DNA of 64,000 bases from Gemmatimonadota bacterium (lineage in GTDB: Bacteria > Gemmatimonadota > Gemmatimonadetes > Gemmatimonadales > Gemmatimonadaceae). Below the pieces are notes generated by a model, which was not told the DNA's origin, ran no database searches, and was given only the letters and a program-made list of their open reading frames with translations. This document shows positions 10,981 through 35,721 of the stretch, piece by piece; position 1 is the first letter of the stretch, and each line of letters opens with the position of its first letter. The DNA is taken from positions 1-64,000 of the forward strand of contig JAIOPJ010000055.1 of assembly GCA_021413975.1 (NCBI GenBank). The letters run 5' to 3'. A program made the position numbers and the translations under genes.

Positions 10981-13406
10981 CGGTCGGCGAGAACGCTGGC
11001 GACCGCGCGCTCCAGCGTCTCCGCGCGGAACGGCTTCTGAAGGAACCCCCCGATCCCGCTCCCCTCGGGCACCGCCTCGGCGGAGAACCCGCTGGCGATG
11101 ATGACCGGCACGCGGATCCCGCGCGCCCGCATCTCCGTGAGGGTCGCCGGGCCGCTGCGCTTGGGCATCGTGAGGTCGAGCAGTACGAGGTCGATCGGCG
11201 CACCGGCGCGTACCTCCAATTGCTCGAGCGCCTCGTCGCCGTCGCAGGCCTGACGGACAGCGAGCCCCAGTCCCTCGAGCATCCGCGTCACCACCGTGCG
11301 CACTTCGGCCTCGTCGTCGACGACGAGCACCGTGCGGCCCCGAAAGGCCGCGCGGTCCACACGCGACGGTGTGACACCGTCGTCGGTAGCCGCGCTCCTG
11401 GCGAACGGCAGCGCGACCTGGAAGCGCGTGCCGCCGCCCGGCGAGGTCTCGAGCGTGAGTGCCCCTTTGTGGCCGCGGATGACGCCGAGCGTCGAGGCGA
11501 GCCCGAGCCCGCGTCCGGCGCCCTTCGACGAGAAGAACGGATCGAAGATCTGACGGGCGGTGGCCTCATCCATCCCGATCCCGTCGTCGCTGACCTCGAG
11601 CACCGCGTACTCCCCCTCGGCCAGGTCGCTGCCCAGGATCGCCCGAGAGAGGCAGCCGCGGTCGAGGAACGCGCGCCGCGTGCGGACGCGCACGGTCCCG
11701 GAGCGGCCGGTCGCCTCGACCGCATCCGAACCGTTCGTCACGAGGTTCATCACGACCTGACGCAGCTGCGTGATGTCACCCGCCACCGCGAGCGGCTCCG
11801 GGCTCAGGGCGAGCACGAGGTCCACCTGGCGCGAGACCGAGACCCGCAACATCTCCTGGATCTCGCGCGCGCACGAGGAGAGGTCGATCGTCCGCACGGC
11901 GATCGCGCCGCGCCCGGCGTACACGAGCATCTGGCGGCAGAGCGCGGCCGCCTGATCCGACGTCTTCAGGATCGCCGTGACGTCCTCGGCGATCTCGGGG
12001 TCGCGTGGCTCGGCCATCCCGATCAGTTCGGCGCGGGCGCGGATGCCCATGAGCAGGTTGTTGAAGTCGTGCGCGATCCCCCCCGCGAGCACGCCGAGGC
12101 TCTCGAGCTTCTGCGTGTGGAGGAGCTGCGCCTCGAGGCGCAGGCGTTCCGTCTCCGCCCGCACGCGTGCCGTGACGTCGTGGAACGACCAGATGCGCGC
12201 GCCCGTGACTTCCGTCCCCGAGAGCTGGTCGACCTCGACCTCCCACACATGACCGTCGGGGAAGGTCAGCGCGCCGCGCACGCCCGTGCGTTCCGGCGTC
12301 GCCGAGAGGAGCGCGCGCTCGGCGGGCGCCGGAAGCATCGCCGCGAGGGGTTCGAGGGTACGCTCGATCGGCTCGCGCAGGGACGGCGGGGTGAGGGCCG
12401 ACGGCCAGATGCGCTTCGTGGCCGGGTTCACGTGCGTCACCGTGCCGGCGGCGTCGGCGACCACGATCCCTTCGGTCGCCGCGTCGAGCACGGCGCGCAG
12501 GCGCAACTCGCCCACCTCGTGCTCGGCGCGCGCACGCCGCATCTCCTCGACGAGTGCGGCCGAGATCAGCGTGGAGAGGATCACGACGTTCGAGAAGATC
12601 CAGGTGAGGACGAGCGTGTCGTTCGGGGTGCCGATCGACATCGGGCCCCAGTGCGCCACTGCCGCGACCATCGCGATCCAGGTCGTGATCAGGCCGCCGA
12701 GCGCGGCGCCGGCCATGCCCAGCCGCAGCGCCGCCCAGAGCAGGAGCGGGAAGGGCAGGAAGAAGAGCCGAGAGACGATCTGATCCTCGTTCACGCCGAA
12801 CGGGAGCCAAGAGACGAGCGCCACCGCCGAGAGCACGCCGATGACCTCGACCGGATCACGTCGCAGCAGGGTCTCGCGGCTCCGACTCAGCGTGAGCCCG
12901 ACGGGTGTGATGACCAGGATGCCCATCGCGTGCGTGAGCCACCAGAGCACGAAGATCCGGAGGAACGCCCCGGGAGCCACGCCGCCCACCGCGTTCAGCG
13001 AGACCACGCTGAGGAAGGCGCCGGTCGCGGCCGCCGCGCCGGAGGCGAGCCCGATCAGGAGCAGGATGTCGCGCACGCGCTCGAGCGAGGCAGCGAACCG
13101 CGCGCGCTGCAGCAGCGCGACGGCCATGGCGACTTCGAGGCCGTTGGCGACACTCGTCCCGAGGACGTGCAGGGGCGCCGAGCCGGCGAGGAACGTCGTG
13201 AGGGCGCCGCCGAGCGCGGCGCCGATCCAGACAGGGAAGGGAAGCAGCAGCCCCGCCGTGACCGCGATGCCACTCGAAGCCCAGATCACCCGGCGAAGCT
13301 CGACCCCGCCGAACTCCCCGAGGGCCAGCGTGGCCTGACCCACGAGCGCATAGACGAGCGCCAGCAGGAGGTTCGACGCGAGGGGCCTGGTGCCGAAGAA
13401 GCGCAT
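10977..13406 (-). CDS. MASE1-type membrane hybrid histidine kinase with receiver domain
   Basis: An 809-residue sensor. Residues about 1-290 are a multi-helix MASE1-like membrane sensor. A PAS domain follows (about 295-405, VLDAATEGIVVADAAGTV). The H-box is LGVLAGGIAHDFNNLLMGI with phospho-acceptor His near residue 445, then an HATPase domain (N box LVTNGSDA, G box VSDDGIGMDE, and GRGLGLASTLGV). A C-terminal receiver begins VLVVDDEAEV with the phospho-Asp in DLVLLDLTMP near residue 743. No separate response regulator is nearby, so output may be by phosphorelay to a distant partner. Start 13406 selected because the MASE1 helices begin right after; an in-frame start 33 codons upstream is Pro-rich and unlikely. 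Confidence 0.92.
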   Translation of the reverse strand: MRFFGTRPLASNLLLALVYALVGQATLALGEFGGVELRRVIWASSGIAVTAGLLLPFPVWIGAALGGALTTFLAGSAPLHVLGTSVANGLEVAMAVALLQRARFAASLERVRDILLLIGLASGAAAATGAFLSVVSLNAVGGVAPGAFLRIFVLWWLTHAMGILVITPVGLTLSRSRETLLRRDPVEVIGVLSAVALVSWLPFGVNEDQIVSRLFFLPFPLLLWAALRLGMAGAALGGLITTWIAMVAAVAHWGPMSIGTPNDTLVLTWIFSNVVILSTLISAALVEEMRRARAEHEVGELRLRAVLDAATEGIVVADAAGTVTHVNPATKRIWPSALTPPSLREPIERTLEPLAAMLPAPAERALLSATPERTGVRGALTFPDGHVWEVEVDQLSGTEVTGARIWSFHDVTARVRAETERLRLEAQLLHTQKLESLGVLAGGIAHDFNNLLMGIRARAELIGMAEPRDPEIAEDVTAILKTSDQAAALCRQMLVYAGRGAIAVRTIDLSSCAREIQEMLRVSVSRQVDLVLALSPEPLAVAGDITQLRQVVMNLVTNGSDAVEATGRSGTVRVRTRRAFLDRGCLSRAILGSDLAEGEYAVLEVSDDGIGMDEATARQIFDPFFSSKGAGRGLGLASTLGVIRGHKGALTLETSPGGGTRFQVALPFARSAATDDGVTPSRVDRAAFRGRTVLVVDDEAEVRTVVTRMLEGLGLAVRQACDGDEALEQLEVRAGAPIDLVLLDLTMPKRSGPATLTEMRARGIRVPVIIASGFSAEAVPEGSGIGGFLQKPFRAETLERAVASVLADR

Positions 13407-17738: not shown

Positions 17739-18311
17739 ATGGCCACATCCGAGATGGAACGCCCCGCCCCTCGCTCCTCGCGACGGCAGCGCTCAACGAC
17801 CGAGACCAGGCAGGACGAACTGCGCGAGGCGCTCTCGCATGTGGGCGAGCTCATGCAGCTTCCGCCCAAGCGCCCCACGGAGGCCGCGCCGGTAATCAAG
17901 GAGGCCGCGGCGTTCAGGCTCCCTTCGACCAAGGGCTCGAAGTTCTGGCTGCCGGTCATCGCGGGGGTGATGCTGGCCGGCGTCGCGCTGTTCATGCTCT
18001 GGCCCGCTGCCGCGCCGACCGTCCCGCTCACCCTGCTCGGGGAGTGGACCACGACGAACCCGAAGTACGCCGGGAATCGCATCGCCATCTCGGCCACCGA
18101 CATCCGTCTCACCATCGCGGATCGCAACCCGACGTCGCACGCGATCAGGGGGATCTCGACGAACGCCACGGGCGATTCGCTCAAGGTCGTGATCAACTAC
18201 CAGGATGAGGGCGGCCTCACCGAACTGAACGCCACGCTCGTGACGCTGCCCACGCGACGGCTCATCTTCGCGCGCCCGCAGGGGCTCGTGTGGGACGCGG
18301 TGACCAAATGA
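17739..18311 (+). CDS. Single-pass membrane protein paired with the pilin-like gene
   Basis: A 190-residue protein: about 70 cytoplasmic residues rich in Arg, Gln and Glu (ERPAPRSSRRQRSTTETRQD), one membrane helix (FWLPVIAGVMLAGVALFMLW) and about 100 extracytoplasmic residues with beta pattern (LLGEWTTTNPKYAGNRIAIS, LIFARPQGLVW). LLGEWxxxxPxYxxRxxxI resembles small lipocalin-like/META-type domains but is not assigned. It overlaps the next gene by 4 bases (ATGA), indicating coupled translation with the pilin-like protein. The in-frame GTG or ATG upstream at 17667 gives a longer basic N-terminus and is less likely. Confidence 0.65.
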   Translation: MATSEMERPAPRSSRRQRSTTETRQDELREALSHVGELMQLPPKRPTEAAPVIKEAAAFRLPSTKGSKFWLPVIAGVMLAGVALFMLWPAAAPTVPLTLLGEWTTTNPKYAGNRIAISATDIRLTIADRNPTSHAIRGISTNATGDSLKVVINYQDEGGLTELNATLVTLPTRRLIFARPQGLVWDAVTK

Positions 18312-18754
18312 ACCGCAATCGAAGCGCATTCACGCTCATCGAGCTGATGTCCGTCATGGTCATCATCGGCCTGCTGGCGGGGATCTCGATCCCCAAGCTC
18401 TCGCGGTCGATCGAGAACGCCCGGGTCACCCGCGCCATCGGTGACCTCCGCGCCATCTCGCAGGAACTCGCCCCACTCGATTCGGTGCCGGCGACCCTCG
18501 CGGCGATGGGCCGCGGGTCGCTCCTCGATCCCTGGGGGCGCCCCTACGTCTACTACAAGTTCCCGCCGGTGGTCCCTCCGGCCCTGCCGAGCGGTGCCCG
18601 CGAGGACCGGTTCTCGGTGCCCATCAACGCGCGTTACGACATCTACAGCCTCGGACCTGACGGCCAGTCCGCGGCGTCGCTCGTGGCGGCCACCAGCCGC
18701 GACGACGTCGTCTTCTCGAGCGAAGGGTTCATCGGGCTCGCGATCAAGTACTGA
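18308..18754 (+). CDS. Type IV pilin-like/GspG-like protein
   Basis: A 148-residue protein with a seven-residue basic leader and the classic prepilin segment FTLIELMSVMVIIGLLAGI. The residue before the cleavage point is Ala (SAFTLIE) where Gly is normal, which may slow processing. The rest is a compact GspG-like globular domain containing DPWGRPYVYYKFPP and YDIYSLGPDGQ, the latter resembling major pseudopilin loops. No other secretion or pilus genes surround it, so it is orphan here; a second copy lies at 34957-35496. Co-translated with the upstream membrane protein. Confidence 0.88.
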   Translation: MNRNRSAFTLIELMSVMVIIGLLAGISIPKLSRSIENARVTRAIGDLRAISQELAPLDSVPATLAAMGRGSLLDPWGRPYVYYKFPPVVPPALPSGAREDRFSVPINARYDIYSLGPDGQSAASLVAATSRDDVVFSSEGFIGLAIKY

Positions 18755-19896: not shown

Positions 19897-20781
19897 ATGC
19901 GACTCCGTCCGGCCACCGACACGCTGCGCGAGCCACCGCTCCCCAAGGGTCGCGACTTCGACGGCCATCCGTTCGTCGGCCTCCACTACCGCCTCTACCG
20001 GGGCGACCTGTTCGCCGGCCGCGTCTCCGGCTCCGAGATCGGCCAGGGCGACCTCGGCGACTGCTTCTTCCTCTCGTCGCTCGTCGCGGTCGCGAACACG
20101 CACCCCTCGCTGATCCGGCGCGCGATCGTCGCGCATGGGGACGACACCTACACGGTGACCTTCTGGGAGCGGAGTCGCGGCCTGGCGCGGCCGCTGCCGA
20201 TCCGCGTGGACTGCCGGTTCCCCACCGATGCGCGTGGCCACCAGAAGTTCGGCCGCGGTCTCCGGGCAGGGCCGCACGGGCACGAACTCTGGCCAGCGCT
20301 CTTCGAGAAGGCGTACGCGGTCTCCCAACGTGGGTACGTGCATACCAATCAGGGCGGCGACGCCACGACGGCGCTGACCGCGCTGACCGGCCTTCCGAGC
20401 CGGGCGTTCGTGCCCGCGAACCTGACGCGCGCCGCGCTCTGGCAGCGACTCGTGGACGGCGTGAACGGGCGGCACCCGATGGTCACCGGCACGCCGACCA
20501 CGCGCGATCTGGAGCGCCGCACCGGGCGCCGCGACCTGGCCGGGCTCCTCGACGACCACTACTACGCGGTGGTCAGTGTCACCGAGCGCCGTGGGGAGCG
20601 ACTGGTCAAGCTCTACTCGCCACTCGTGGACATCACCGCCGCGGCCGTCTCCACGCCGGAGGCACGCGACGACGCGCACCGGCATGTGGTGATGAGCCTC
20701 GACGACTACCGGCGGGACTTCGACCAACTGGCGGTGAGTGCGCTGGGGCGCGGGGATCCCGGTGCGGCGAAGGTCGGATAG
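19897..20781 (+). CDS. Calpain-like cysteine protease (C2 family) with an unusual active site
   Basis: A 294-residue cytoplasmic protein with no signal peptide. The calpain core is clear: IGQGDLGDCFFLSSLVA holds the oxyanion Gln and catalytic Cys, HELWPALFEKAYAVSQRGY is the characteristic calpain helix, and DDHYYAVV carries the catalytic-position His. About 20 residues after that His, where calpains have the catalytic Asn (N-P-W), this protein has KLYSPL, i.e. Ser-Pro. The enzyme might be weak, altered or inactive. Bacterial calpain-like proteases are scarce and their roles mostly unknown. The start ATG at 19897 lies 115 bases from the nearest possible ORF. Confidence 0.88.
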   Translation: MRLRPATDTLREPPLPKGRDFDGHPFVGLHYRLYRGDLFAGRVSGSEIGQGDLGDCFFLSSLVAVANTHPSLIRRAIVAHGDDTYTVTFWERSRGLARPLPIRVDCRFPTDARGHQKFGRGLRAGPHGHELWPALFEKAYAVSQRGYVHTNQGGDATTALTALTGLPSRAFVPANLTRAALWQRLVDGVNGRHPMVTGTPTTRDLERRTGRRDLAGLLDDHYYAVVSVTERRGERLVKLYSPLVDITAAAVSTPEARDDAHRHVVMSLDDYRRDFDQLAVSALGRGDPGAAKVG

Positions 20782-20853
20782 CACCCGACCACGCCTCGCG
20801 CGTCGACGCGCATGCTTCCCGAGTCGGCCCCGACGGTGTTGCTTCAAGCTCGG

Positions 20854-23800
20854 ATGCGAATGCACACGGCTTTCTTCCTTGCGATCCTGGCGCTGTGCGG
20901 CGCCCTTCCCGCCCGCGCGCAGGCCCCGGTCCGCGGCGCCACGTCAGGCCAAGTGATCGGCACCGTCGTCGCGGACGACGGCCGCCCCGTGGAGGGCGCG
21001 CGCGTCGCCGTGACGCGCCGCCAGGGCGCCTCGGGCACCGAGGCCCTCACCGACTCCCGCGGGGCGTTCCGTCTCCCGCCGTTGGCGCCGGGCCTCTACT
21101 CCCTCACCGTCCGCCAGCTCGGCTTCCGCCCCGCGAGCCTCGCCGTCGTGCGTGTCGTGGCCGGCGACACGGTGAGCGTGCGCGTATCGCTCACCCGCGC
21201 GCCGGCCCAGCTCTCCACGGTCGTGGTGATCCGTTCGCCCGCGTCGATCGACGCGCTCTCCCCCGAATCGCCCCGACGCATCGAGCGCGAGACCGCGCTC
21301 CTCCTGCCCACGCCGCGCGATGCGTCGAGCGTGATCGCCCTGGTGCCCGGGGCGAAGGACGGGCGACTCTGGGGTGGTGCCGGCGCGGTCACCAACGACT
21401 TCAAGCTCGACGGCGTCTCGTTGAACCATCCGGGCGTCGGCGGCGACTTCCTGCAGCTGCCGCGCGACTGGGTCGAGACGGTCGAGATCCGCGGGATCGG
21501 GGCCAACGCGGAGTTCGGCAACTTCCAGGGCGGCGTGGTCAACGCGATCACGCGTACCGGGAGCAATGTGCGTACGGCGGCGTTCCGTTCGTTCTTCGAG
21601 TCGGAACGGCTCACGGCCACCAACTTCGATCTCGACGAGCAGGGGGCCGAGCAGGCAGGGCGGACTGAGCTCAGCGGCGAGGCCGGCGGAGCGATCCTGC
21701 AGGACCGGCTCTTCTACTTCGTGGGCGCCCAAGCGGTGTCGCGGACGTTCCGCTCGCCCGACCTCGTCTCGACGCCACCTGGGGACTTCCTCGGCGCGCG
21801 CGAGACGCAACGCGATCTCCGCGGCATCGGCAAGCTCACCTGGCTGCGCGCACCGGGAGAGCGCATGGAGGCGCTCCTCGGCGTCAGTGACCGCACGATC
21901 GCCAACGCCGGGATCAACGGGATCGACGGCGTCTCGGCATTGCAGCGCGTGCGCGCGCCGACCCTCTGGTACTCCGCCACCTGGCGACGTGAGCTCACGG
22001 CGCGCACGTCGCTCGACCTGCGGCTCGCCGGATATGACGCGCGCGAGCGCCGCGACGGCAATGGTGGTGCCGGGACGCCCGCGGTACGCGAGCTGAGGCT
22101 GGGGAACCTGCCGGTGGAGCAGAACGCCGAGTTCGATGAGCGCTCCGAGCCGTCGAGTCACTCGGCCGCGCTCACGATGCGCCACTCGGGTCGTGCGTTC
22201 GGCGCCGAGCACCAGCTCGCGTGGGGGGCCGAGCTCACGCTCGGAGAGTGGAACGATGCGCTCACCCGGAACGGCGGTGTCACGTGGCGCCCGTATGTGG
22301 TGACTGGCGTGCCCTTCTCGGCGACGGACGCGTCCACATGGACCACCACCGGGAGCGATTGGGGCGGGGAAGTCCACTTGCGGAGTCGGACCCGGAGCAC
22401 GGCCTACTTCGTGCAGGACCAGATCACGATCGGCTCGCGGATCACGCTGAGCCCTGGCATCCGGTTCAGTACCTGGACGGGGTGGCTCACCCCGTGCGCC
22501 GCGGTCGAATCCGATCCGGTCTGCGCCGGACGCCTCAGGGCCGCGAGCGCCAAGGCGTTCGATCCGCGCGTCGGGGTCTCCTGGGACGTCACGGGACGGA
22601 ACACCCTCGCGATCAAGGCGCACTGGGGCCGCTATCACCAGGGGATGTACGCGCTCTTCTTCGATCGCGCGTCGGGAGCGAACATCCACTCCAATGAGCG
22701 CTTCTACTACGCCGCGCCCCCGCTGACCAGTTCGCGCACGACCTTCGACACCGCGGCGCGCGACTCCCTCCTCGGGCCGGGAGGGTTCTCGCCGTTCTGG
22801 GACGAAGAGATCCGGAACGAGTCGGGGGTGGTGAAGGGTTACCGCCAGCCGTACGTCGATCAGCTGAGCATCGGCGTGGAGAAGACACTGGGTGCGCACT
22901 GGAAGCTCGAACTCCTCGCCCTCGCTCGCACCAACGGCGACATCGTCGGCCTCGTGGATCGCAACATGGCGTCGAACTATACGGCGCTCAGCGACATCGC
23001 GGTCGGTCACCGACTGCTCTTCGGCACGATCCTCGATGCCCAGGGACGGCCGCTCGTGCTCGACCGGCTCTGGGTCTCCAATCGCGACCTGATCGACCAG
23101 GTCCTGCGGATGAACGCCAACCTGCGGCCTGGCGCGCCACCGCGCTGCTTCGGCGGGTGGTGCCCCGCCGACCTCGGCGCACTCACGTTCGACCCCCGGA
23201 TCGAGCTCGCGCCGATCGCATCGGCTCGGCGACGGTATGGACAGCTCACGACGACCCTCACCGCGGCATTCGCCGACTGGCGCGCCGAGGGTTCGGTGAC
23301 CGTGGCGCGACTCGAAGGGAACGTCGCCGGCGTGACCGGGCACGGCGTGACGGGGAGCCGATTCAGCGCCGGCCCGTTCGTCCGCCCCAACGAGGCAGAG
23401 AACTTCAACGGAGCGCTCCCGGACGCGACCGAGTTCGAGGCCAAGGTCTGGCTCACGGCTCGGCTGCCGTTCGGCCTGAAGGGCGGGTTCCTCTTCACCC
23501 ACATCCTCGGCGAGCGGACCACGCCGAGCTTCACGATCCTCGGACGCTATCGGTACACGGATCGGTTCGGAGAGACCGCGAACGAGGAGCTCACGCGGCA
23601 GGTGCTGGGGCAGCAGCTGTTCGTGGAGTCGCGCGGGTCGCGCAACTACGCGAGTCGCACCATGCTCGACCTCCACGTCGAGCGCGCGCTGCCACTGCGG
23701 GTCGCGCGGCAGGCGGCGCTCTCGGTGGATCTGTTCAACGCGCTCGGGTCGCGCGCGGTCACGCGCGCGAAGACGGAGATCGACGATCAGTCGATCACGG

Positions 23801-23880
23801 ACCCCTCGTCGACGCTCGGCGCCACGCGGCAGCGCGTGGCGCCGCGGTCGATCCGGATCGGAGTGCGGATCGGGTCGTAG
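20854..23880 (+). CDS. TonB-dependent receptor with carboxypeptidase regulatory-like domain
   Basis: A 1008-residue outer-membrane receptor. Signal peptide is about residues 1-25 (HTAFFLAILALCGALPARAQ). Then comes a CarboxypepD_reg domain (about 28-115, IGTVVADDGRPVEGARVAV and LPPLAPGLYSLTVRQLGFRP), a plug domain with FKLDGVSLNHPGVGGDF and VEIRGIGANAEFGNFQGG, and a 22-strand type barrel to the end. It resembles OmpA-linked/SusC-like receptors; ligand unknown. It is immediately upstream (149 bases) of the lanthipeptide precursor gene, so co-transcription is possible but not shown. Two in-frame ATGs (20854, 20860) can start it; a further in-frame start at 20812 lies before the signal. Confidence 0.88.
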   Translation: MRMHTAFFLAILALCGALPARAQAPVRGATSGQVIGTVVADDGRPVEGARVAVTRRQGASGTEALTDSRGAFRLPPLAPGLYSLTVRQLGFRPASLAVVRVVAGDTVSVRVSLTRAPAQLSTVVVIRSPASIDALSPESPRRIERETALLLPTPRDASSVIALVPGAKDGRLWGGAGAVTNDFKLDGVSLNHPGVGGDFLQLPRDWVETVEIRGIGANAEFGNFQGGVVNAITRTGSNVRTAAFRSFFESERLTATNFDLDEQGAEQAGRTELSGEAGGAILQDRLFYFVGAQAVSRTFRSPDLVSTPPGDFLGARETQRDLRGIGKLTWLRAPGERMEALLGVSDRTIANAGINGIDGVSALQRVRAPTLWYSATWRRELTARTSLDLRLAGYDARERRDGNGGAGTPAVRELRLGNLPVEQNAEFDERSEPSSHSAALTMRHSGRAFGAEHQLAWGAELTLGEWNDALTRNGGVTWRPYVVTGVPFSATDASTWTTTGSDWGGEVHLRSRTRSTAYFVQDQITIGSRITLSPGIRFSTWTGWLTPCAAVESDPVCAGRLRAASAKAFDPRVGVSWDVTGRNTLAIKAHWGRYHQGMYALFFDRASGANIHSNERFYYAAPPLTSSRTTFDTAARDSLLGPGGFSPFWDEEIRNESGVVKGYRQPYVDQLSIGVEKTLGAHWKLELLALARTNGDIVGLVDRNMASNYTALSDIAVGHRLLFGTILDAQGRPLVLDRLWVSNRDLIDQVLRMNANLRPGAPPRCFGGWCPADLGALTFDPRIELAPIASARRRYGQLTTTLTAAFADWRAEGSVTVARLEGNVAGVTGHGVTGSRFSAGPFVRPNEAENFNGALPDATEFEAKVWLTARLPFGLKGGFLFTHILGERTTPSFTILGRYRYTDRFGETANEELTRQVLGQQLFVESRGSRNYASRTMLDLHVERALPLRVARQAALSVDLFNALGSRAVTRAKTEIDDQSITDPSSTLGATRQRVAPRSIRIGVRIGS

Positions 23881-23979: not shown

Positions 23980-24028
23980 TGCGCTCCGGCGGTCGTTCGA
24001 TCCACTCCACCCCCTATCAGGAGTCCGC

Positions 24029-24202
24029 ATGTCGAAGGGCGAGAAGGACAAGAAGTCGGACAAGTCGAGCAAGCTCGAGGTCAAGGGTGACGCGTTCAAG
24101 AAGCTGACCGACAAGGAGCTCGACAAGGTGACGGGTGGCCGGCCCATGCGGGGTCAGACCACGCTGAATCCGACCAGTTCGGACGGCTGCTGCGGCGGCT
24201 GA
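24029..24202 (+). CDS. Lanthipeptide precursor peptide (LanA) with double-glycine leader
   Basis: A 57-residue peptide with an AGGAG ribosome site 5 bases before ATG. Residues 1-37 are a lysine/aspartate-rich leader ending LTDKELDKVTGG, a double-glycine motif of the kind cut by C39 (bacteriocin-type) peptidases. Residues 38-57 would be the core, beginning RPMRGQ and ending with DGCCGG. It holds three Thr (44, 45, 49), two Ser (50, 51) and two Cys (54, 55), so up to two (methyl)lanthionine rings and up to three leftover dehydrated or reduced residues could form. No class I FNLD leader box is seen, although the enzymes are class I (LanB/LanC). A start upstream in frame at 23951 is rejected because it has no ribosome site. 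No homologue is known to me. Confidence 0.8.
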   Translation: MSKGEKDKKSDKSSKLEVKGDAFKKLTDKELDKVTGGRPMRGQTTLNPTSSDGCCGG

Positions 24203-24246
24203 CCGGCTGCCTCGGCTCGCGCGCGTAAGCGCTCGACGACGAACCC

Positions 24247-25122
24247 GTGCGACTCGGGGTGCTCGACACCGGTCATCCGAGATGGGCCATCGAACTGGCT
24301 CCTCATGTCGAGCACCTCGGGTACTCGCGGTACTGGCTCGCGGAGCATCACGGGCATCCCGCGCAGAGTGGCAGCCCGGAAGTCCTCACCGGCATCATCG
24401 CGGCGATCACGGACACGATCCGTGTCGGTCCCGCGGGCGTGCTCCTGCGGTATTACAGTCCCTACAAGGTCGCACAGTCCTTCAGACTGCTCGACGGCCT
24501 CTTCCGTCCGCGGATCGACCTCGGTGTCGCGCGCGGAGCAGGTGGCGATGACGCGGTCTCCGCCGCGTTGCTCGACGGGCGCACCGCCACGCTGTCGGAG
24601 TACGAAGCAAAGGTCGGATCGCTCGCCGAGCTCCTGCGAGTACCGTCCGCGAGCGGGCGACCGAACCCCCTCCCGACATTCGGTGATGATGTCCCGCTAG
24701 GCGAGTTCTGGGTGCTCGGAGCCACGCGGCGGACCGCGCTCTTGGCCGCGCGACTGGGGGCGGCGTTCGGCTTCTCGGAATACTTCGCCCGCATGGCCGA
24801 TCCCGAGGTCGATACCGCGGCGATCGTGCGTGCCTATCGCACGGCGTTCCAGCCCGGCCCCGCGCTGCGCGCCCCGAGGTGGAACGTCGCCATCACCGGC
24901 GTCGCCACGGCGCGACCTGACTCCGGGATACGCATCGCGCCGATCGCGGGACCTCCCCCGCTGATCGGCTCGGTCGGGCAGTGGCGCTCGCGCCTGCGCG
25001 ACACGGCGGAGCGGTACGAGACCGACGAGGTCATCGTGCTCGATCTCTGCGACCAGATCGCCGACCGTCGACGCTCGTACGACCTCATGGCGGAAGCGGC
25101 CGACCTCGCGGTGCGCGCGTGA
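24247..25122 (+). CDS. Luciferase-like (LLM) flavin/F420 oxidoreductase of the lanthipeptide operon
   Basis: A 291-residue TIM-barrel oxidoreductase of the bacterial luciferase/LLM class. Family marks are RLGVLDTG at the N-terminus, YSRYWLAEHHG (strand 3 region), VGPAGVLLRYYSPYKVAQSF and ARGAGGDDAV. It begins at a GTG 44 bases after the precursor gene and ends overlapping the dehydratase start (GTGA). In class V lexapeptide, a related F420H2-dependent LLM enzyme reduces dehydroalanine to D-alanine; by analogy this protein may reduce dehydrated residues in the core peptide, or oxidise it in another way. That role is inference from neighbourhood. Cofactor choice (FMN or F420) cannot be read reliably. 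Confidence 0.85.
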   Translation: MRLGVLDTGHPRWAIELAPHVEHLGYSRYWLAEHHGHPAQSGSPEVLTGIIAAITDTIRVGPAGVLLRYYSPYKVAQSFRLLDGLFRPRIDLGVARGAGGDDAVSAALLDGRTATLSEYEAKVGSLAELLRVPSASGRPNPLPTFGDDVPLGEFWVLGATRRTALLAARLGAAFGFSEYFARMADPEVDTAAIVRAYRTAFQPGPALRAPRWNVAITGVATARPDSGIRIAPIAGPPPLIGSVGQWRSRLRDTAERYETDEVIVLDLCDQIADRRRSYDLMAEAADLAVRA

Positions 25123-28100
25123 ACGCGAGGGCCCCGGACGACGCGACCTGGGTGCCCGCCGGGTTCTTCCACCTGCGGACACCGCTCCTGCCGTTCGCGT
25201 CGGCCCTGGTGACGTCATCGGGTCCCGCGAGCGGATCCGGACGCGACGACCCTGACGTCACCCCCGCGCGGGCCCCAGCGCAGGCGCTCGCCGGGTCGCG
25301 GGAGCGGCTGCGCGAATGGCTCGGCGTCCCCGCGGTCCGCGAAGCGCTCTACCTCGCGTCGGCCGACCTTGATGCGCGCATCGACGCTTGGCTCGTCGAG
25401 CCGCCGTCCGAAGGGCCGTCCGACATCGAGGTCACGCTCCACAAGTATCGCGCGAGGAGCTGCGGACGCTCGACCCCGTTCGGGCTCTTCGCGGGGACCT
25501 CCACTGGCGTGGTCGGGAGCGAACAGCGGATCGAGCTCGCCCCTGCCGCGCACTACCGTCGGCGCAGCGCGCTCGACTCCGACTTCGTCTCGGCTGTGGC
25601 ACGGTCCCTCGCCGGCGCGCTGGGAGCCCACGCGATGCTGCGCCCGAATGCCAGCCTCTATGCCGCGGCGGGCCGGCTCTGCTACACCGCGGCCACCGTC
25701 GGGACACACGGCGCCCGGTTCGGTATGGAGGCCCTCACTCCGGACGCTCCGCTGCTGGCGGCTCTCGCGTGCGCCGGCGACGGCGCGACATTCGGTGAGG
25801 TCGTCGATGCCGTGCTTGCGAGCGTCGGGGATGTCGCTCGGGAGGAGGCGGACGCATACGTGCGTGAACTCGTCGACCGGGACATCCTCGTCACTGAAGC
25901 GGAGCCTCCGATCACCGGGCGGCCGGCGCTCGACGCATTGATGGCGCACATCGATGATCGCGCCCGGGCGCTCGGCGCGTCGCGCGCTGCGTCGCACGCT
26001 GCGTCCCACGGCGCGTCAGACGGTGATGCGCTCGTCGCGGCGCTCGACGCCGGCCGCCGGCTGCGGGTGGCGTCCGCCGCGTTCGCGGAGCTCGACGCGG
26101 AGCCGATCGCCGACGGCCGTGATCGCTATGCGGCGACGGCGGCCACACTCGCAACGCTCGCGCAGACCCCGGTCTCCCACTGCTTCCAGGTGGACCTCGC
26201 CAAGCCCACCGTCGCGGCGACGCTGCACGAGTCCGTCACGCACGAGCTGCACGCCGCGACCCTGCTGTTGCAGCGGATGTTCCGTGCGCGGCGGCATGGC
26301 GGGCTCGCGGACTTCCGGGAGCGGTTCGCCGCGCGCTACGAGCAGCGTGAGGTCCCGCTGGTGGAAGCCCTCGACGAGGAATGCGGCATCGGCTTCGAAG
26401 GGGCGGAGACGCCCGACAGCGATCCGTCGCCTCTCCTCCACGGCCTCGGATTCGGCGCGTCGGCCGTCACGGCCGAGATCATGTCGCCGGTCGCCCGCTG
26501 GCTCCTCCCGCAGGTGACCGAGGTCCTGCGCCGCGGCGGGATGGAGCTTCGGATCAGCGACGCCGATGTCGCGCGATGGGAACGCGAGTCCCACTTCGAG
26601 CGACCCGCTCCGCTGCCCGACGCTTTCACCACGATCGCGACGCTCGAGGCCGGGAGTGACACGGCGGTGCGCGAAGGGCGGTTCAGGCTCCTGCACGGCG
26701 GCGCCGGTGCACAGGGCGCCTCCACGCTCGGGCGTTTCTGCCAACGCGATGACCTGCTCGCTGCCGAGGTGCGTCGGTTCCTGCACGCAGAGGAGGCGCT
26801 GCGGCCTGACGCGGCCTTCGCCGAGGTGGTGTTCCGGTCCGAGGCGTATCTCGGCAACGTCGTGCGTCGACCGGTGTTGCGCGCCTTCGAGATCCCGACC
26901 CTCGGCCGTTCCGGCGCACCGCGCGACGATCAACTCCCGCTCACCGACCTGCGCATCTCCCTGGTCGATGGTCGATTCCGTCTGCGCTCGGCGCGTCTCG
27001 ATCGCGAAGTGATCCCCAGGATGAGCACGGCGTTGGTCCTGTCGCGCGGAAGCATCCCCGGCGCGGTCCGCTTCCTCGGTGCGCTGCAGACCCAGCAGGG
27101 CATCGGCACCCGGTTCCAGTGGGGGGCACTCGAGTCGCTGCCGGTGCTGCCGCGCGTCGTCACAGGCCGCGTCGTGCTCGCGCTGGCGCGGTGGCGACTT
27201 GATGCCGGAGCACTGGCTCCGTTGCGGAGTGCACCCTGTTCCGCGCGCCTCGACGCGATGCGCTCGCTCCGCGTCGAATGGGGTCTGCCGCGCTGGGTGG
27301 GACTGAGCGCCGGTGACGATCCCGTCCTCCCACTCGACCTGGACGATGTGCTCGCCGTCGAGGTGATCGCGCGTCTGGCCGGGAGCGGTGTGACGCTCAC
27401 GGAGGTGTTCCCGGGACCCGACGGGTCGGCGGTGCGCGGACCAGAGGGCCGATACATGCACGAGCTCGTCATCCCGTTCATCCGGAGGCCGCACACCGGT
27501 GCCTCGACTGACGTCGCCGCGGACATGGCGAGGGATGCGTCGATCGTCGCGGCGAAGCCGGCGGGGGGAGCGGTGGCCGCACGCATCGGGCGCACACTGC
27601 TCCCCGGCGGCGAGTGGTGCACGGCGAAGCTGTACGGCGGACGCGCGCTCGCGGACCGCCTGCTCTCGGAGGGGATCGCGCCGCTCGTGCGAGAGTCGGA
27701 GAGCTCCGGACTCGTCGACCGCTGGTTCTTCCTCCGCTACGCCGATCCCGAGCCGCACCTCCGACTGCGCGTGCATGGCCGGCCCGAGCGCCTCATGAGC
27801 GAGTTCCTTCCGGCCCTTCACGACGCCGCGACGCGATGGAAGCATGAAGGCCTGCTCTGGAAGCTCGAGCTCTCGACCTACGAGCGCGAGATCGAGCGCT
27901 ACGGGGGGCCGGATCTGATCGCCGGCGCAGAAGCCGTGTTCGCCGCGGACAGCGCGGCTGTGCTGCAACTGCTCGACACGACCCCCGGGCCCGATGCGCG
28001 TTGGCAGCAGACGCTGCTGGGCGCGCATCACCTCCTGGTCGATTGGGGTCTCTCGCTCGATGATCGGATCGCGATGCTCAGCGACGCCGAGCGCCGGTTC

Positions 28101-28451
28101 GGGCAGGAGTTCGCGGCCGACGCGCCGTTCTTCTCGCGACTGAACGCACGGATCCGCCGCGAGCGCGACCTGCTCGGGGCATTGGTGCAGGGGCCCGTTC
28201 CCGACTGGATCGTCGAGCGATCGGCCCGGGTGCGGCCGATCCTGGGTACACTGCGCGCTGCGCTGGCGTCGCGTGCGGGCGGCGCGGCGGGCCTGCCGCT
28301 GTCGATCGTGCGCGACTTCCTGCATCTGCATGTGAACCGGGCGCTGCGCTCGTCGCACCGCGCACAGGAGTTCGTCATCGTGGCGATGCTGCTGCGACTC
28401 GCGCGCGCGATGCGAGCCACCGGCGGCGCCGAGGCAGGGGCGCGCCCGTGA
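25119..28451 (+). CDS. lanB: Full-length class I lanthipeptide dehydratase (LanB)
   Basis: An 1110-residue protein combining both LanB parts. The N-terminal Lant_dehydr domain (to about residue 800) carries the hallmark KYRARSCGRSTPFGLFAG (about 104-125) used to bind glutamyl-tRNA and glutamylate Ser/Thr. The C-terminal SpaB_C elimination domain (about 825-1100) has EWCTAKLYGG, WFFLRYADPEPHLRLRVHG and YEREIERYGG. LanB uses glutamyl-tRNA(Glu) to activate Ser/Thr of the precursor, then eliminates glutamate to give dehydroamino acids. Start is GTG at 25119, overlapping the LLM gene stop (GTGA); the longer in-frame start at 24981 overlaps the LLM gene and is rejected. Confidence 0.93.
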   Translation: MNARAPDDATWVPAGFFHLRTPLLPFASALVTSSGPASGSGRDDPDVTPARAPAQALAGSRERLREWLGVPAVREALYLASADLDARIDAWLVEPPSEGPSDIEVTLHKYRARSCGRSTPFGLFAGTSTGVVGSEQRIELAPAAHYRRRSALDSDFVSAVARSLAGALGAHAMLRPNASLYAAAGRLCYTAATVGTHGARFGMEALTPDAPLLAALACAGDGATFGEVVDAVLASVGDVAREEADAYVRELVDRDILVTEAEPPITGRPALDALMAHIDDRARALGASRAASHAASHGASDGDALVAALDAGRRLRVASAAFAELDAEPIADGRDRYAATAATLATLAQTPVSHCFQVDLAKPTVAATLHESVTHELHAATLLLQRMFRARRHGGLADFRERFAARYEQREVPLVEALDEECGIGFEGAETPDSDPSPLLHGLGFGASAVTAEIMSPVARWLLPQVTEVLRRGGMELRISDADVARWERESHFERPAPLPDAFTTIATLEAGSDTAVREGRFRLLHGGAGAQGASTLGRFCQRDDLLAAEVRRFLHAEEALRPDAAFAEVVFRSEAYLGNVVRRPVLRAFEIPTLGRSGAPRDDQLPLTDLRISLVDGRFRLRSARLDREVIPRMSTALVLSRGSIPGAVRFLGALQTQQGIGTRFQWGALESLPVLPRVVTGRVVLALARWRLDAGALAPLRSAPCSARLDAMRSLRVEWGLPRWVGLSAGDDPVLPLDLDDVLAVEVIARLAGSGVTLTEVFPGPDGSAVRGPEGRYMHELVIPFIRRPHTGASTDVAADMARDASIVAAKPAGGAVAARIGRTLLPGGEWCTAKLYGGRALADRLLSEGIAPLVRESESSGLVDRWFFLRYADPEPHLRLRVHGRPERLMSEFLPALHDAATRWKHEGLLWKLELSTYEREIERYGGPDLIAGAEAVFAADSAAVLQLLDTTPGPDARWQQTLLGAHHLLVDWGLSLDDRIAMLSDAERRFGQEFAADAPFFSRLNARIRRERDLLGALVQGPVPDWIVERSARVRPILGTLRAALASRAGGAAGLPLSIVRDFLHLHVNRALRSSHRAQEFVIVAMLLRLARAMRATGGAEAGARP

Positions 28452-29728
28452 GGGTCGTGCACGGCTGGGAGCCCGTGCTGACCGGCGACGACGCCGACCG
28501 CGCGCGCACGGCGCTCGACGCGATCGCACGCGCACTCGGGCCGGCCGCCGAGGGAAGCGATCCCGCGCCGGCCGTCGTCGGCGAAGCGCCACCACCGGCG
28601 GACGCCACGCTCGCGGACGGACTCGGCGGGTGCGCGCTCTTCTTCGCCGCGCTGCATGAGGCGCACCCGGGTCTGGGCCACGATCGCACCGCGCGCCGGC
28701 TGCTCGACGGGGCCATCGGCGCCAGCGGTGGCATCGCCGACTCGCCCTCGCTGTTCTCCGGCATCACCGGGGTGGCGTGGACGATGCAGCGACTCGCGTC
28801 CCTGTGCGATCCCGACGCGCTCGCCGCCCTCGACGAGATCGACGACGCGATGCGAGCGGCGCTCCGAGGGACGCCGTCACCCGCCGGCTTCGATCTGATC
28901 GACGGACTCGTCGGCATCGGTGTTCTCGCGCTGGAGCGTATGCCTCGCCCCGCCGCGCGCGAGACGCTCGAACGACTCGTGGTCTGGCTCGAGGCGCTCG
29001 CCGAGCGGACACCCGATGGCCTCACGTGGCGGGCGCGACCGGAGGCGTTGCACGCGGACGCGCGCGCGTCGTTCCCCGCCGGGTGTCACTACCCCGGGGT
29101 CGCGCACGGCACGGCGGGCGTCGTCGGGCTGCTCGCGGGGCTGTTGCGCGCCGGCATCGCGCCGGCCGGCACGCGGGACCTGCTCGACGGAGCCGTGCGA
29201 TGGCTGTTCGCGCAGGAGCTCCCCGGGGGTCGCGCGCTCTTCGCGCATCAGAGCGACGGCACCACCGCGCGCCCACCTGCGCGGAATGCGTGGTGCACCG
29301 GCGGTCCCGGCATCGCGCTCATGCTGTCGCGCGCCGGTTCCGCGGCAGGCCGGCCTGAATGGCAGGCGAGGGCGGTCGCCCTCGCGGTGTCGGCGATGCG
29401 TCGGCCGCTCGCCGAGTCGGGCATGCGCGACGCCTGTCTCTGCCACGGGAGCGCAGGCCTCGGCCTCTTGTCGTCTCGCTGGTACCACGCCACCGGCGAC
29501 CGGCGATTCCGAGACGACGCGGTGCGATGGTTCCGGCAGACCCTCGATCAGCGTCGGCCGGGAGAAGGCGTCGCGGGATTCAGTGCGATGAACGCACCGC
29601 GCCAACGACTCGAGCCGGCGGCGGGCCTGCTCTTCGGCGCGGCGGGGATCGGGCTCGCCCTGCTCGCGGCCACCACCGGTCGGGACCCGGCCTGGGATCG
29701 CGTGCTGCTCATGTCGGATCCGCCGTAG
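28448..29728 (+). CDS. lanC: Lanthionine synthetase C-like cyclase (LanC)
   Basis: A 426-residue alpha/alpha-barrel cyclase. Zinc ligands are visible: Cys283 in NAWCTGGPG, Cys332 and His333 in CLCHGSAGLG; the catalytic-type His220 lies in VAHGTAG. An SGITGVAWTMQ glycine-rich motif and GFDLIDGLVG are also typical. LanC adds Cys thiols to dehydrated Ser/Thr to form lanthionine or methyllanthionine. The GTG start overlaps the LanB stop (GTGA), so LLM, LanB and LanC form a translationally linked unit. No LanT transporter, LanP protease, immunity or regulator gene follows; the next gene is on the other strand. Confidence 0.93.
   Translation: MRVVHGWEPVLTGDDADRARTALDAIARALGPAAEGSDPAPAVVGEAPPPADATLADGLGGCALFFAALHEAHPGLGHDRTARRLLDGAIGASGGIADSPSLFSGITGVAWTMQRLASLCDPDALAALDEIDDAMRAALRGTPSPAGFDLIDGLVGIGVLALERMPRPAARETLERLVVWLEALAERTPDGLTWRARPEALHADARASFPAGCHYPGVAHGTAGVVGLLAGLLRAGIAPAGTRDLLDGAVRWLFAQELPGGRALFAHQSDGTTARPPARNAWCTGGPGIALMLSRAGSAAGRPEWQARAVALAVSAMRRPLAESGMRDACLCHGSAGLGLLSSRWYHATGDRRFRDDAVRWFRQTLDQRRPGEGVAGFSAMNAPRQRLEPAAGLLFGAAGIGLALLAATTGRDPAWDRVLLMSDPP

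Positions 29729-34956: not shown

Positions 34957-34957
<1 letters not shown>
32999..34957 (-). CDS. Membrane HD-GYP phosphodiesterase with HAMP domain
   Basis: A 652-residue receptor-type enzyme. TM1 is about residues 13-38, then a periplasmic sensor of about 190 residues, TM2 (TRTLVILLALGLVTAFTF), HAMP (about 250-305), a GAF-like or linker region (about 315-430) and an HD-GYP domain at 440-630 with HSERVTHLALAIGRQLGL, LLHDIGK, SHHERIDGAGYPDGL and ADVYDALTSDRPYR. All metal and catalytic motifs are present, so it should hydrolyse c-di-GMP. It follows the second pilin gene with a one-base TGATG overlap. A 104-base gap leads to the FIST gene. Confidence 0.92.
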
Positions 34958-35496
<539 letters not shown>

Positions 35497-35599
35497 ATGC
35501 CGGGTTCTGAGGAAGAAGGACGCTGGGTGAGTATCGGCAGGGGCCGGTCGGCGCTTCAGTCCTGCCCGAAGGTATTGACGAATCGACCGGCCCTCAGGT

Positions 35600-35618
35600 G
35601 ACGGCCGGGTCGGCCGTC
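35600..35618. terminator. Weak hairpin downstream of the serine hydrolase gene
   Basis: GACGGCC-GGGTC-GGCCGTC forms a seven-bp stem, 5-base loop, about 104 bases after the stop of the serine hydrolase gene and before the pilin start (both minus). There is no U-run after it, so Rho-independent termination is doubtful. Nothing else recognisable lies in 35497-35721. Confidence 0.25.
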
Positions 35619-35721
35619 GGTTCCGGCTCACGAATCGCACCCTGTCGAATCGGAATCCACGCTCCGGCCGCTGGCGGGACAGAGCGCCTGCGGACCGTTT
35701 TGCCGAGGTGAACCCCGGCCG

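What the first reader, a model, noticed from the sequence alone, without database searches (positions are those of the whole stretch)
24029..29728. Compact class I lanthipeptide operon with an LLM oxidoreductase
A precursor with core Thr/Ser/Cys, a luciferase-like enzyme, a full LanB and a LanC are arranged in order with GTGA overlaps between the last three genes. Class I clusters with an LLM enzyme between precursor and LanB are rare to my knowledge; in a likely Gemmatimonadota genome this would be a new lanthipeptide family.
Basis: partly seen in the sequence, partly recalled or inferred. Interest (0 to 1): 0.85.

Follow-up and report, generated by a model that had tools for sequence, protein, structure and literature searches.

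The report
Lanthipeptide operon with luciferase-like enzyme
This bacterium carries a small set of genes that should build a ring-bearing peptide of a well-known kind, together with a flavin enzyme of the luciferase family whose job in such gene sets is not known and may be a new chemical step.

Summary
At 24029-29728 lie a 57-aa precursor, a luciferase-like (LLM) oxidoreductase, a full-length LanB and a LanC on the + strand, with GTGA overlaps LLM/LanB and LanB/LanC. Domain hits, conserved positions against NisB and NisC, and a leader in register with annotated class I lanthipeptides (3 of 100,000 shuffles as good) support a class I lanthipeptide cluster. 'Rare, new family' is only partly supported: an LLM also lies close to a LanB in another genome of the phylum, and in annotated class I clusters on two Bacteroidota plasmids; in Chryseobacterium it overlaps lanB, as here. 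Unusual points: the LLM is of the MsnO8 family (TIGR03558), not the F420-type LanJC family; no CofD (F420) and no C39 peptidase (GG leaders) matched in the 92.7%-complete genome; 0 of 16 same-genus genomes have LanB. My paper searches (listings and passages) showed no account of an MsnO8-type LLM in class I clusters. Most likely job of the LLM: FMN-dependent tailoring, probably reduction of leftover dehydroamino acids, possibly oxygenation; this is inferred. Common descent of the four cluster-borne LLMs is not established. New variant of a known kind, moderate interest.

The parts
24029..24139 (+). Leader of the precursor (residues 1-37), ending KLEVKGDAFKKLTDKELDKVTGG
   Evidence: translation; leader matrix 3 of 100,000 shuffles; TIGR01847 bacteriocin signal 20.7 bits, cut-off 15.7
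24140..24202 (+). Core RPMRGQTTLNPTSSDGCCGG and stop: 5 Ser/Thr, 2 Cys
   Evidence: translation; counts. Cleavage after GG is inferred
24247..25122 (+). LLM flavin oxidoreductase, MsnO8 family, shortened near the N terminus and in the C-terminal half compared with genomic group-1 LLMs of the phylum
   Evidence: TIGR03558 188.8 bits; PF00296; alignments; in-frame TAA at 24226-24228 rules out a longer N terminus
25119..28451 (+). LanB, full-length dehydratase (glutamylation and elimination domains fused)
   Evidence: PF04738 on residues 71-749, PF14028 on residues 833-1093; aligned with PDB chains 9g04, 5ehk and NisB 4wd9
28448..29728 (+). LanC cyclase
   Evidence: PF05147; alignment with NisC 2g02
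24019..24023 (+). Likely ribosome-binding site AGGAG of the precursor gene
   Evidence: read from the sequence

Best explanation
This is a compact class I lanthipeptide biosynthetic operon. LanB glutamylates and then eliminates Ser/Thr of the core RPMRGQTTLNPTSSDGCCGG, and LanC adds the two Cys to two of the dehydro residues, giving two (methyl)lanthionine rings; up to three dehydro residues are left. The LLM, whose gene overlaps the start of lanB, acts on the peptide with FMN; my first choice is reduction of leftover Dha/Dhb to D-Ala/D-Abu, the job that LanJC enzymes do with F420. Shown: genes, order, overlaps, domains, leader type, no CofD or C39 peptidase match in the assembly. Inferred: dehydration and rings (strong, from family), FMN rather than F420 (moderate), reduction as the reaction (about even odds), leader removal by an unclustered protease.
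For: LanB domains; NisB positions K79, R83, R87, T89, R784, R786, E823, R826 are identical in the window (counted; catalytic roles recalled). LanC keeps the D, H, R, C and CH positions of NisC (roles recalled). Leader matrix. TIGR03558 is the top family of all four cluster-borne LLMs: window 188.8 and Spirosoma 167.5 bits (over the cut-off 166.95), Chryseobacterium 119.5 and L063 111.7 bits (under it). EHH is kept in all four. No CofD match (the control found the family in 10 of 14 genomes). An LLM is proposed to reduce Dha in birimositide (PMC7268733, passages), and F420H2-dependent LxmJ does so in lexapeptide, as told in PMC8068269 (passages).
Against: No chemistry is shown. The closest solved relative is called a monooxygenase, so oxygenation is a live rival. 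The GRAPGxD-like motif of genomic group-1 LLMs reads GVARGAGGD here, so flavin binding itself is unproven. NF038153 (class I leader model) does not list the precursor at E<=1, and a gapped leader profile failed. No exporter or leader protease is in the operon and no C39 peptidase matched in the 92.7%-complete assembly, so the pathway may be incomplete.
Confidence: 0.55

Rival explanations
1. Same cluster, but the LLM is a true flavin monooxygenase that hydroxylates or sulfoxidises the peptide.
For: Best PDB relative 4us5, 'LUCIFERASE-LIKE MONOOXYGENASE' (E 1.5e-29); TIGR03558 is named for MsnO8; no CofD, while the LanJC enzymes in the passages read are described as F420H2-dependent.
Against: The role given to LLMs in lanthipeptide clusters in the passages read is reduction; three surplus Ser/Thr are at hand.
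Confidence: 0.3
2. The LLM is a general flavin enzyme that happens to lie in the operon and does not act on the peptide.
For: 136 of 395 phylum genomes, own included, have some match to it; the grouping of cluster-borne LLMs fell to 41/26 in a control tree; the LLM label needs 4 changes on the LanB tree.
Against: GTGA overlap with lanB, an LLM in three other LanB clusters of two phyla, and clear divergence from 29 genomic LLMs of the phylum.
Confidence: 0.1
3. The cluster is decaying or incomplete: no export, no leader protease, single occurrence in the genus.
For: 0 of 16 same-genus genomes have LanB; no C39 peptidase in the genome, whereas three of the five related loci from which I scanned some proteins have one (L063, L064, L067).
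Against: All four frames are open and the catalytic positions checked are kept; leader proteases can be unclustered (class I paenilan, PMC8960859, passages).
Confidence: 0.15

Closest known systems
Class I lanthipeptide cluster on Chryseobacterium sp. G0186 plasmid NZ_CP033919
   Same: GG-leader precursors, LanC, LLM directly upstream of and overlapping lanB by 34 bases
   Different: 14 precursors, two LanC, a second LanB, a peptidase-domain ABC transporter (annotation); best LLM match 42% over only 85 residues
Class I lanthipeptide cluster on Spirosoma oryzicola plasmid NZ_CP089546
   Same: LLM, LanB, LanC, leaders in the same register
   Different: Six precursors, two LanC, a peptidase-domain ABC transporter, prolyl oligopeptidase (annotation); LLM 28% identical and about 5 kb from lanB; LanB in a separate clade
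LanJC dehydroamino acid reductases (LxmJ; the birimositide LLM)
   Same: LLM-superfamily enzyme in a lanthipeptide cluster (PMC7268733, PMC8068269, passages)
   Different: Reported with class II and V clusters; F420H2, MSMEG_4879 family; here TIGR03558, class I, no CofD match
MsnO8-type LLM, PDB 4us5 (that this entry is MsnO8 is recalled)
   Same: Closest solved relative by sequence
   Different: 338 aa against 291; not known to me as a peptide-tailoring enzyme (recalled)
Nisin NisB and NisC
   Same: Same domains and aligned catalytic positions
   Different: FNLD-type leader, LanP and LanT, no LLM (recalled)

Membership tests
Class I lanthipeptide cluster | LanB with glutamylation and elimination domains | tested here: met
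   PF04738 411 bits and PF14028 208 bits on one protein
Class I lanthipeptide cluster | LanB catalytic positions | tested here: met
   eight NisB positions identical (counted; roles recalled); other catalytic positions such as the C-terminal His were not checked
Class I lanthipeptide cluster | Stand-alone LanC with Zn ligands | tested here: met
   PF05147; NAWC from residue 280 and CHG from 332, aligned with NisC
Class I lanthipeptide cluster | Precursor with leader and Ser/Thr/Cys core | tested here: met
Class I lanthipeptide cluster | (Methyl)lanthionine in the product | not testable with these tools
   needs expression and mass spectrometry
Bacteroidetes-type GG-leader class I | NF038153 leader model | tested here: not met
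   not listed at E<=1; one Spirosoma and one Chryseobacterium precursor score 40.4 and 38.7 bits, two of three phylum precursors are listed below the cut-off of 22 (20.4, 13.3) and one is not listed
Bacteroidetes-type GG-leader class I | LxLxKx5L ... GG register | tested here: inconclusive
   L, V, L and GG in register, Lys one place off; leader matrix 3 of 100,000 shuffles
Bacteroidetes-type GG-leader class I | C39 protease | tested here: not met
   no PF03412 match in the genome, 92.7% complete; control found it in 8 of 14 genomes
LanJC | F420-type LLM family (MSMEG_4879, TIGR03564) | tested here: not met
   TIGR03564 is not among the 16 families listed for the LLM
LanJC | F420 available in the cell | tested here: not met
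   no CofD PF01933 match in the genome, 92.7% complete
LanJC | reduces dehydro residues | not testable with these tools
   needs an assay
MsnO8 family (TIGR03558) | score over the curated cut-off | tested here: met
   188.8 against 166.95 bits
Thiopeptide cluster | split LanB and no LanC (recalled) | tested here: not met
   LanB is fused and LanC present; the 'thiopeptide-type' TIGR03891 hit (187 bits) covers the same residues 833-1093 as the LanB C-terminal domain
Thiopeptide cluster | YcaO and pyridine synthase genes (recalled) | not tested
   no search for these families was made in the genome

The most novel reading that the evidence does not exclude
A diverged, FMN-dependent branch (or several branches) of the MsnO8-type LLMs serves as a peptide-tailoring enzyme of class I lanthipeptides in at least two phyla, doing F420-free what LanJC does with F420, or a new oxygenation, and has joined unrelated LanB clusters more than once.
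Probability: 0.3. Interest if true: 0.6.

Novelty: new variant of a known kind. Interest (0 to 1): 0.4.

Why it matters
In the passages read, D-amino acids were reported from class II and class V lanthipeptides, and Walker et al. (PMC7268733) noted that reductases in class I clusters might mean the same there or a new modification. A four-gene cluster with one small precursor is a simple system in which to test this. An F420-free LLM reductase would be easier to use in E. coli than LanJC (inference; that E. coli lacks F420 is recalled).

Tried and rejected
Common origin of the cluster-borne LLMs: a 39-row tree put the four on one side of a branch (98/95), but the program warned of long branches. 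In a thinned set with two outgroups and without the L063 and Chryseobacterium LLMs, the window-Spirosoma pair fell to 41/26. Not claimed.

Shared motif: window and L063 LLMs share QSGSP after EHH. A DNA pattern for it matched only these in the loci then held and gave 0 stretches in genome contigs. It demanded TAC for Tyr and is blind to LLMs without QSGSP, such as Spirosoma's, so it says little about rarity. The search for related loci with LanB also gave no relative.

Leader profile: a first gapped HMM did not separate the precursor from its shuffles (best shuffle 8.4 bits; precursor not in the top six), though it was best among the window's ORFs (5.0 bits, E 0.76); leaders had been cut at internal GG or GA. 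The ungapped matrix was made after seeing that. It uses all 6 Spirosoma leaders and 5 of 14 Chryseobacterium leaders (eight dropped have the same block as one used, one differs by a residue). G021's leader was left out as out of register; for G105, G318 and G221 I identified no precursor. Without the two GG columns 98 of 100,000 shuffles reach the Bacteroidota-only score; with a matrix from the three phylum leaders 15 of 100,000 do.

Calpain-like C2 peptidase at 19897-20781 as leader protease: its 71% relative is in G144, which is not among the matching genomes of the LanB search, so it is not tied to LanB. TonB receptor 20812-23880 as a cluster part: it gives 14 matches in this genome, itself included, and the 14-kb stretch around its 45% relative in G008 shows no other match to window proteins.

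Structure of the LLM: single-sequence AlphaFold2 failed (mean pLDDT 33.6), so no fold search was made. Plasmid searches with two other window proteins did not help to name the phylum.

Full report
What is there. On the + strand of the window, 24029-29728 holds four genes in order: a 57-aa precursor, a 291-aa luciferase-like (LLM) oxidoreductase, a 1110-aa LanB and a 426-aa LanC. LLM and LanB share GTGA at 25119-25122, LanB and LanC at 28448-28451. The LLM start cannot lie further upstream, since an in-frame TAA stands at 24226-24228. G+C is 0.69-0.74 in the 1-kb steps of the cluster and 0.68-0.72 beside it; consensus scans found no sigma-70-type promoter and one terminator-like site, fewer than in shuffles.

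LanB and LanC. LanB carries both Lant_dehydr_N and Lant_dehydr_C and aligns with PDB chains 9g04, 5ehk and NisB 4wd9. Eight NisB positions that I recall as catalytic (K79, R83, R87, T89, R784, R786, E823, R826) are identical in the window. LanC aligns with 8byk and NisC 2g02 with the D, H, R, C and CH positions kept. It is the only LanB-N match in the 3.08-Mb, 92.7%-complete genome. None of 16 same-genus genomes has one; in the phylum sample 19 of 395 genomes, own included, pass the Pfam cut-off, and 8 of these, own included, score over 400 bits.

Precursor. The leader ends KLEVKGDAFKKLTDKELDKVTGG. Walker et al. report that a number of Bacteroidetes class I precursors have LxLxKx5L leaders, many ending in GG, with a C39 protease often in the cluster (PMC7268733, passages). 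Leaders from Spirosoma, Chryseobacterium and three genomes of the phylum fall in the same register. A matrix from 11 Bacteroidota leaders gives the window 23.7 bits: 3 of 100,000 shuffles reach it, and no other of 555 ORFs exceeds 7.2 bits; three held-out leaders of the phylum score 19.6-26.0. Against this: the NCBI class I leader model does not list it, and an earlier gapped profile failed.

LLM. Its best family is TIGR03558, MsnO8; its best PDB relative is 4us5. Against 29 LLMs of the phylum it lacks about 11 residues after the first strand and about 35-40 in the C-terminal half, and the GRAPGxD-like motif reads GVARGAGGD. L063's LLM also has an 11-column gap near the N terminus; Spirosoma's does not, but lacks the C-terminal stretch. 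EHH is kept in all four cluster-borne LLMs. The genome shows no CofD match, so F420, the cofactor of LanJC, is unlikely. PF01933 also rings in E. coli in that control, so the family is wider than F420 synthesis; its absence still counts against F420.

How unusual is it? In L063 an LLM (12070-13041, opposite strand) stands next to the precursor, close to LanB. On the Spirosoma plasmid an LLM lies in a cluster with six annotated class I precursors; on the Chryseobacterium plasmid it overlaps lanB by 34 bases. With four LLM queries I found one in 1 of 8 fetched phylum loci (seven with a LanB over 400 bits, and G206; G221 and G318 appear to carry the same LanB) and in 2 of 16 fetched plasmid loci. 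The Chryseobacterium locus was fetched because an LLM search flagged it, so that rate leans upward; 10 further phylum genomes over the cut-off and 57 of 73 plasmid records were not looked at. On the LanB tree the window falls in a group (91/93) with five phylum LanBs, two proteobacterial ones and one of Streptomyces, apart from Bacteroidota (100/100); G289's LanB falls elsewhere with weak support; the LLM label needs four changes. One origin of the LLMs is neither shown nor excluded.

Literature. Searches (listings, abstracts' beginnings) and passages of ten papers showed no account of an MsnO8-type LLM in a class I cluster; where LanJC-type LLMs were described they were with class II or V. 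Subscription papers, supplements and the pinensin paper were not seen, so this is weak evidence of absence.

Mechanism. LanB and LanC should make up to two rings from 5 Ser/Thr and 2 Cys, leaving up to three dehydro residues. I favour FMN-dependent reduction of these by the LLM (about 0.5), then oxygenation (about 0.3). Export and leader removal are open: no C39 peptidase matched in the genome, though L063, L064 and L067 have one.

Verdict. A real class I lanthipeptide operon and an uncharacterised variant through its MsnO8-type LLM; not a categorically new system.

Noticed in passing
window 19897-20781 (+): Calpain-like C2 cysteine peptidase (PF00648), rare in the family: 4 of 99 genomes match, own included; only G144 is close (71%), and its match reads with one TAA inside.
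   Followed up: partly
window 18290-18754 (+) and 34957-35640 (-): Two pilin-like ORFs on either side of the cluster; both match one ORF in L118 (66% and 52%).
   Followed up: no
L066 16483-18366 (-): B12-binding radical SAM protein next to the precursor, LanC and LanB of G021, a possible second kind of tailoring enzyme.
   Followed up: no
L123 7616-8506 and L122 8045-8962: A cupin-like protein (annotated) precedes LanB in Rhizobium; an ORF in the same place in Cupriavidus looks similar by eye, not tested.
   Followed up: no
L063 6220-8196 (+): LanC-like protein of 658 aa; the Pfam match covers residues 52-418 only, leaving about 240 residues unassigned.
   Followed up: no
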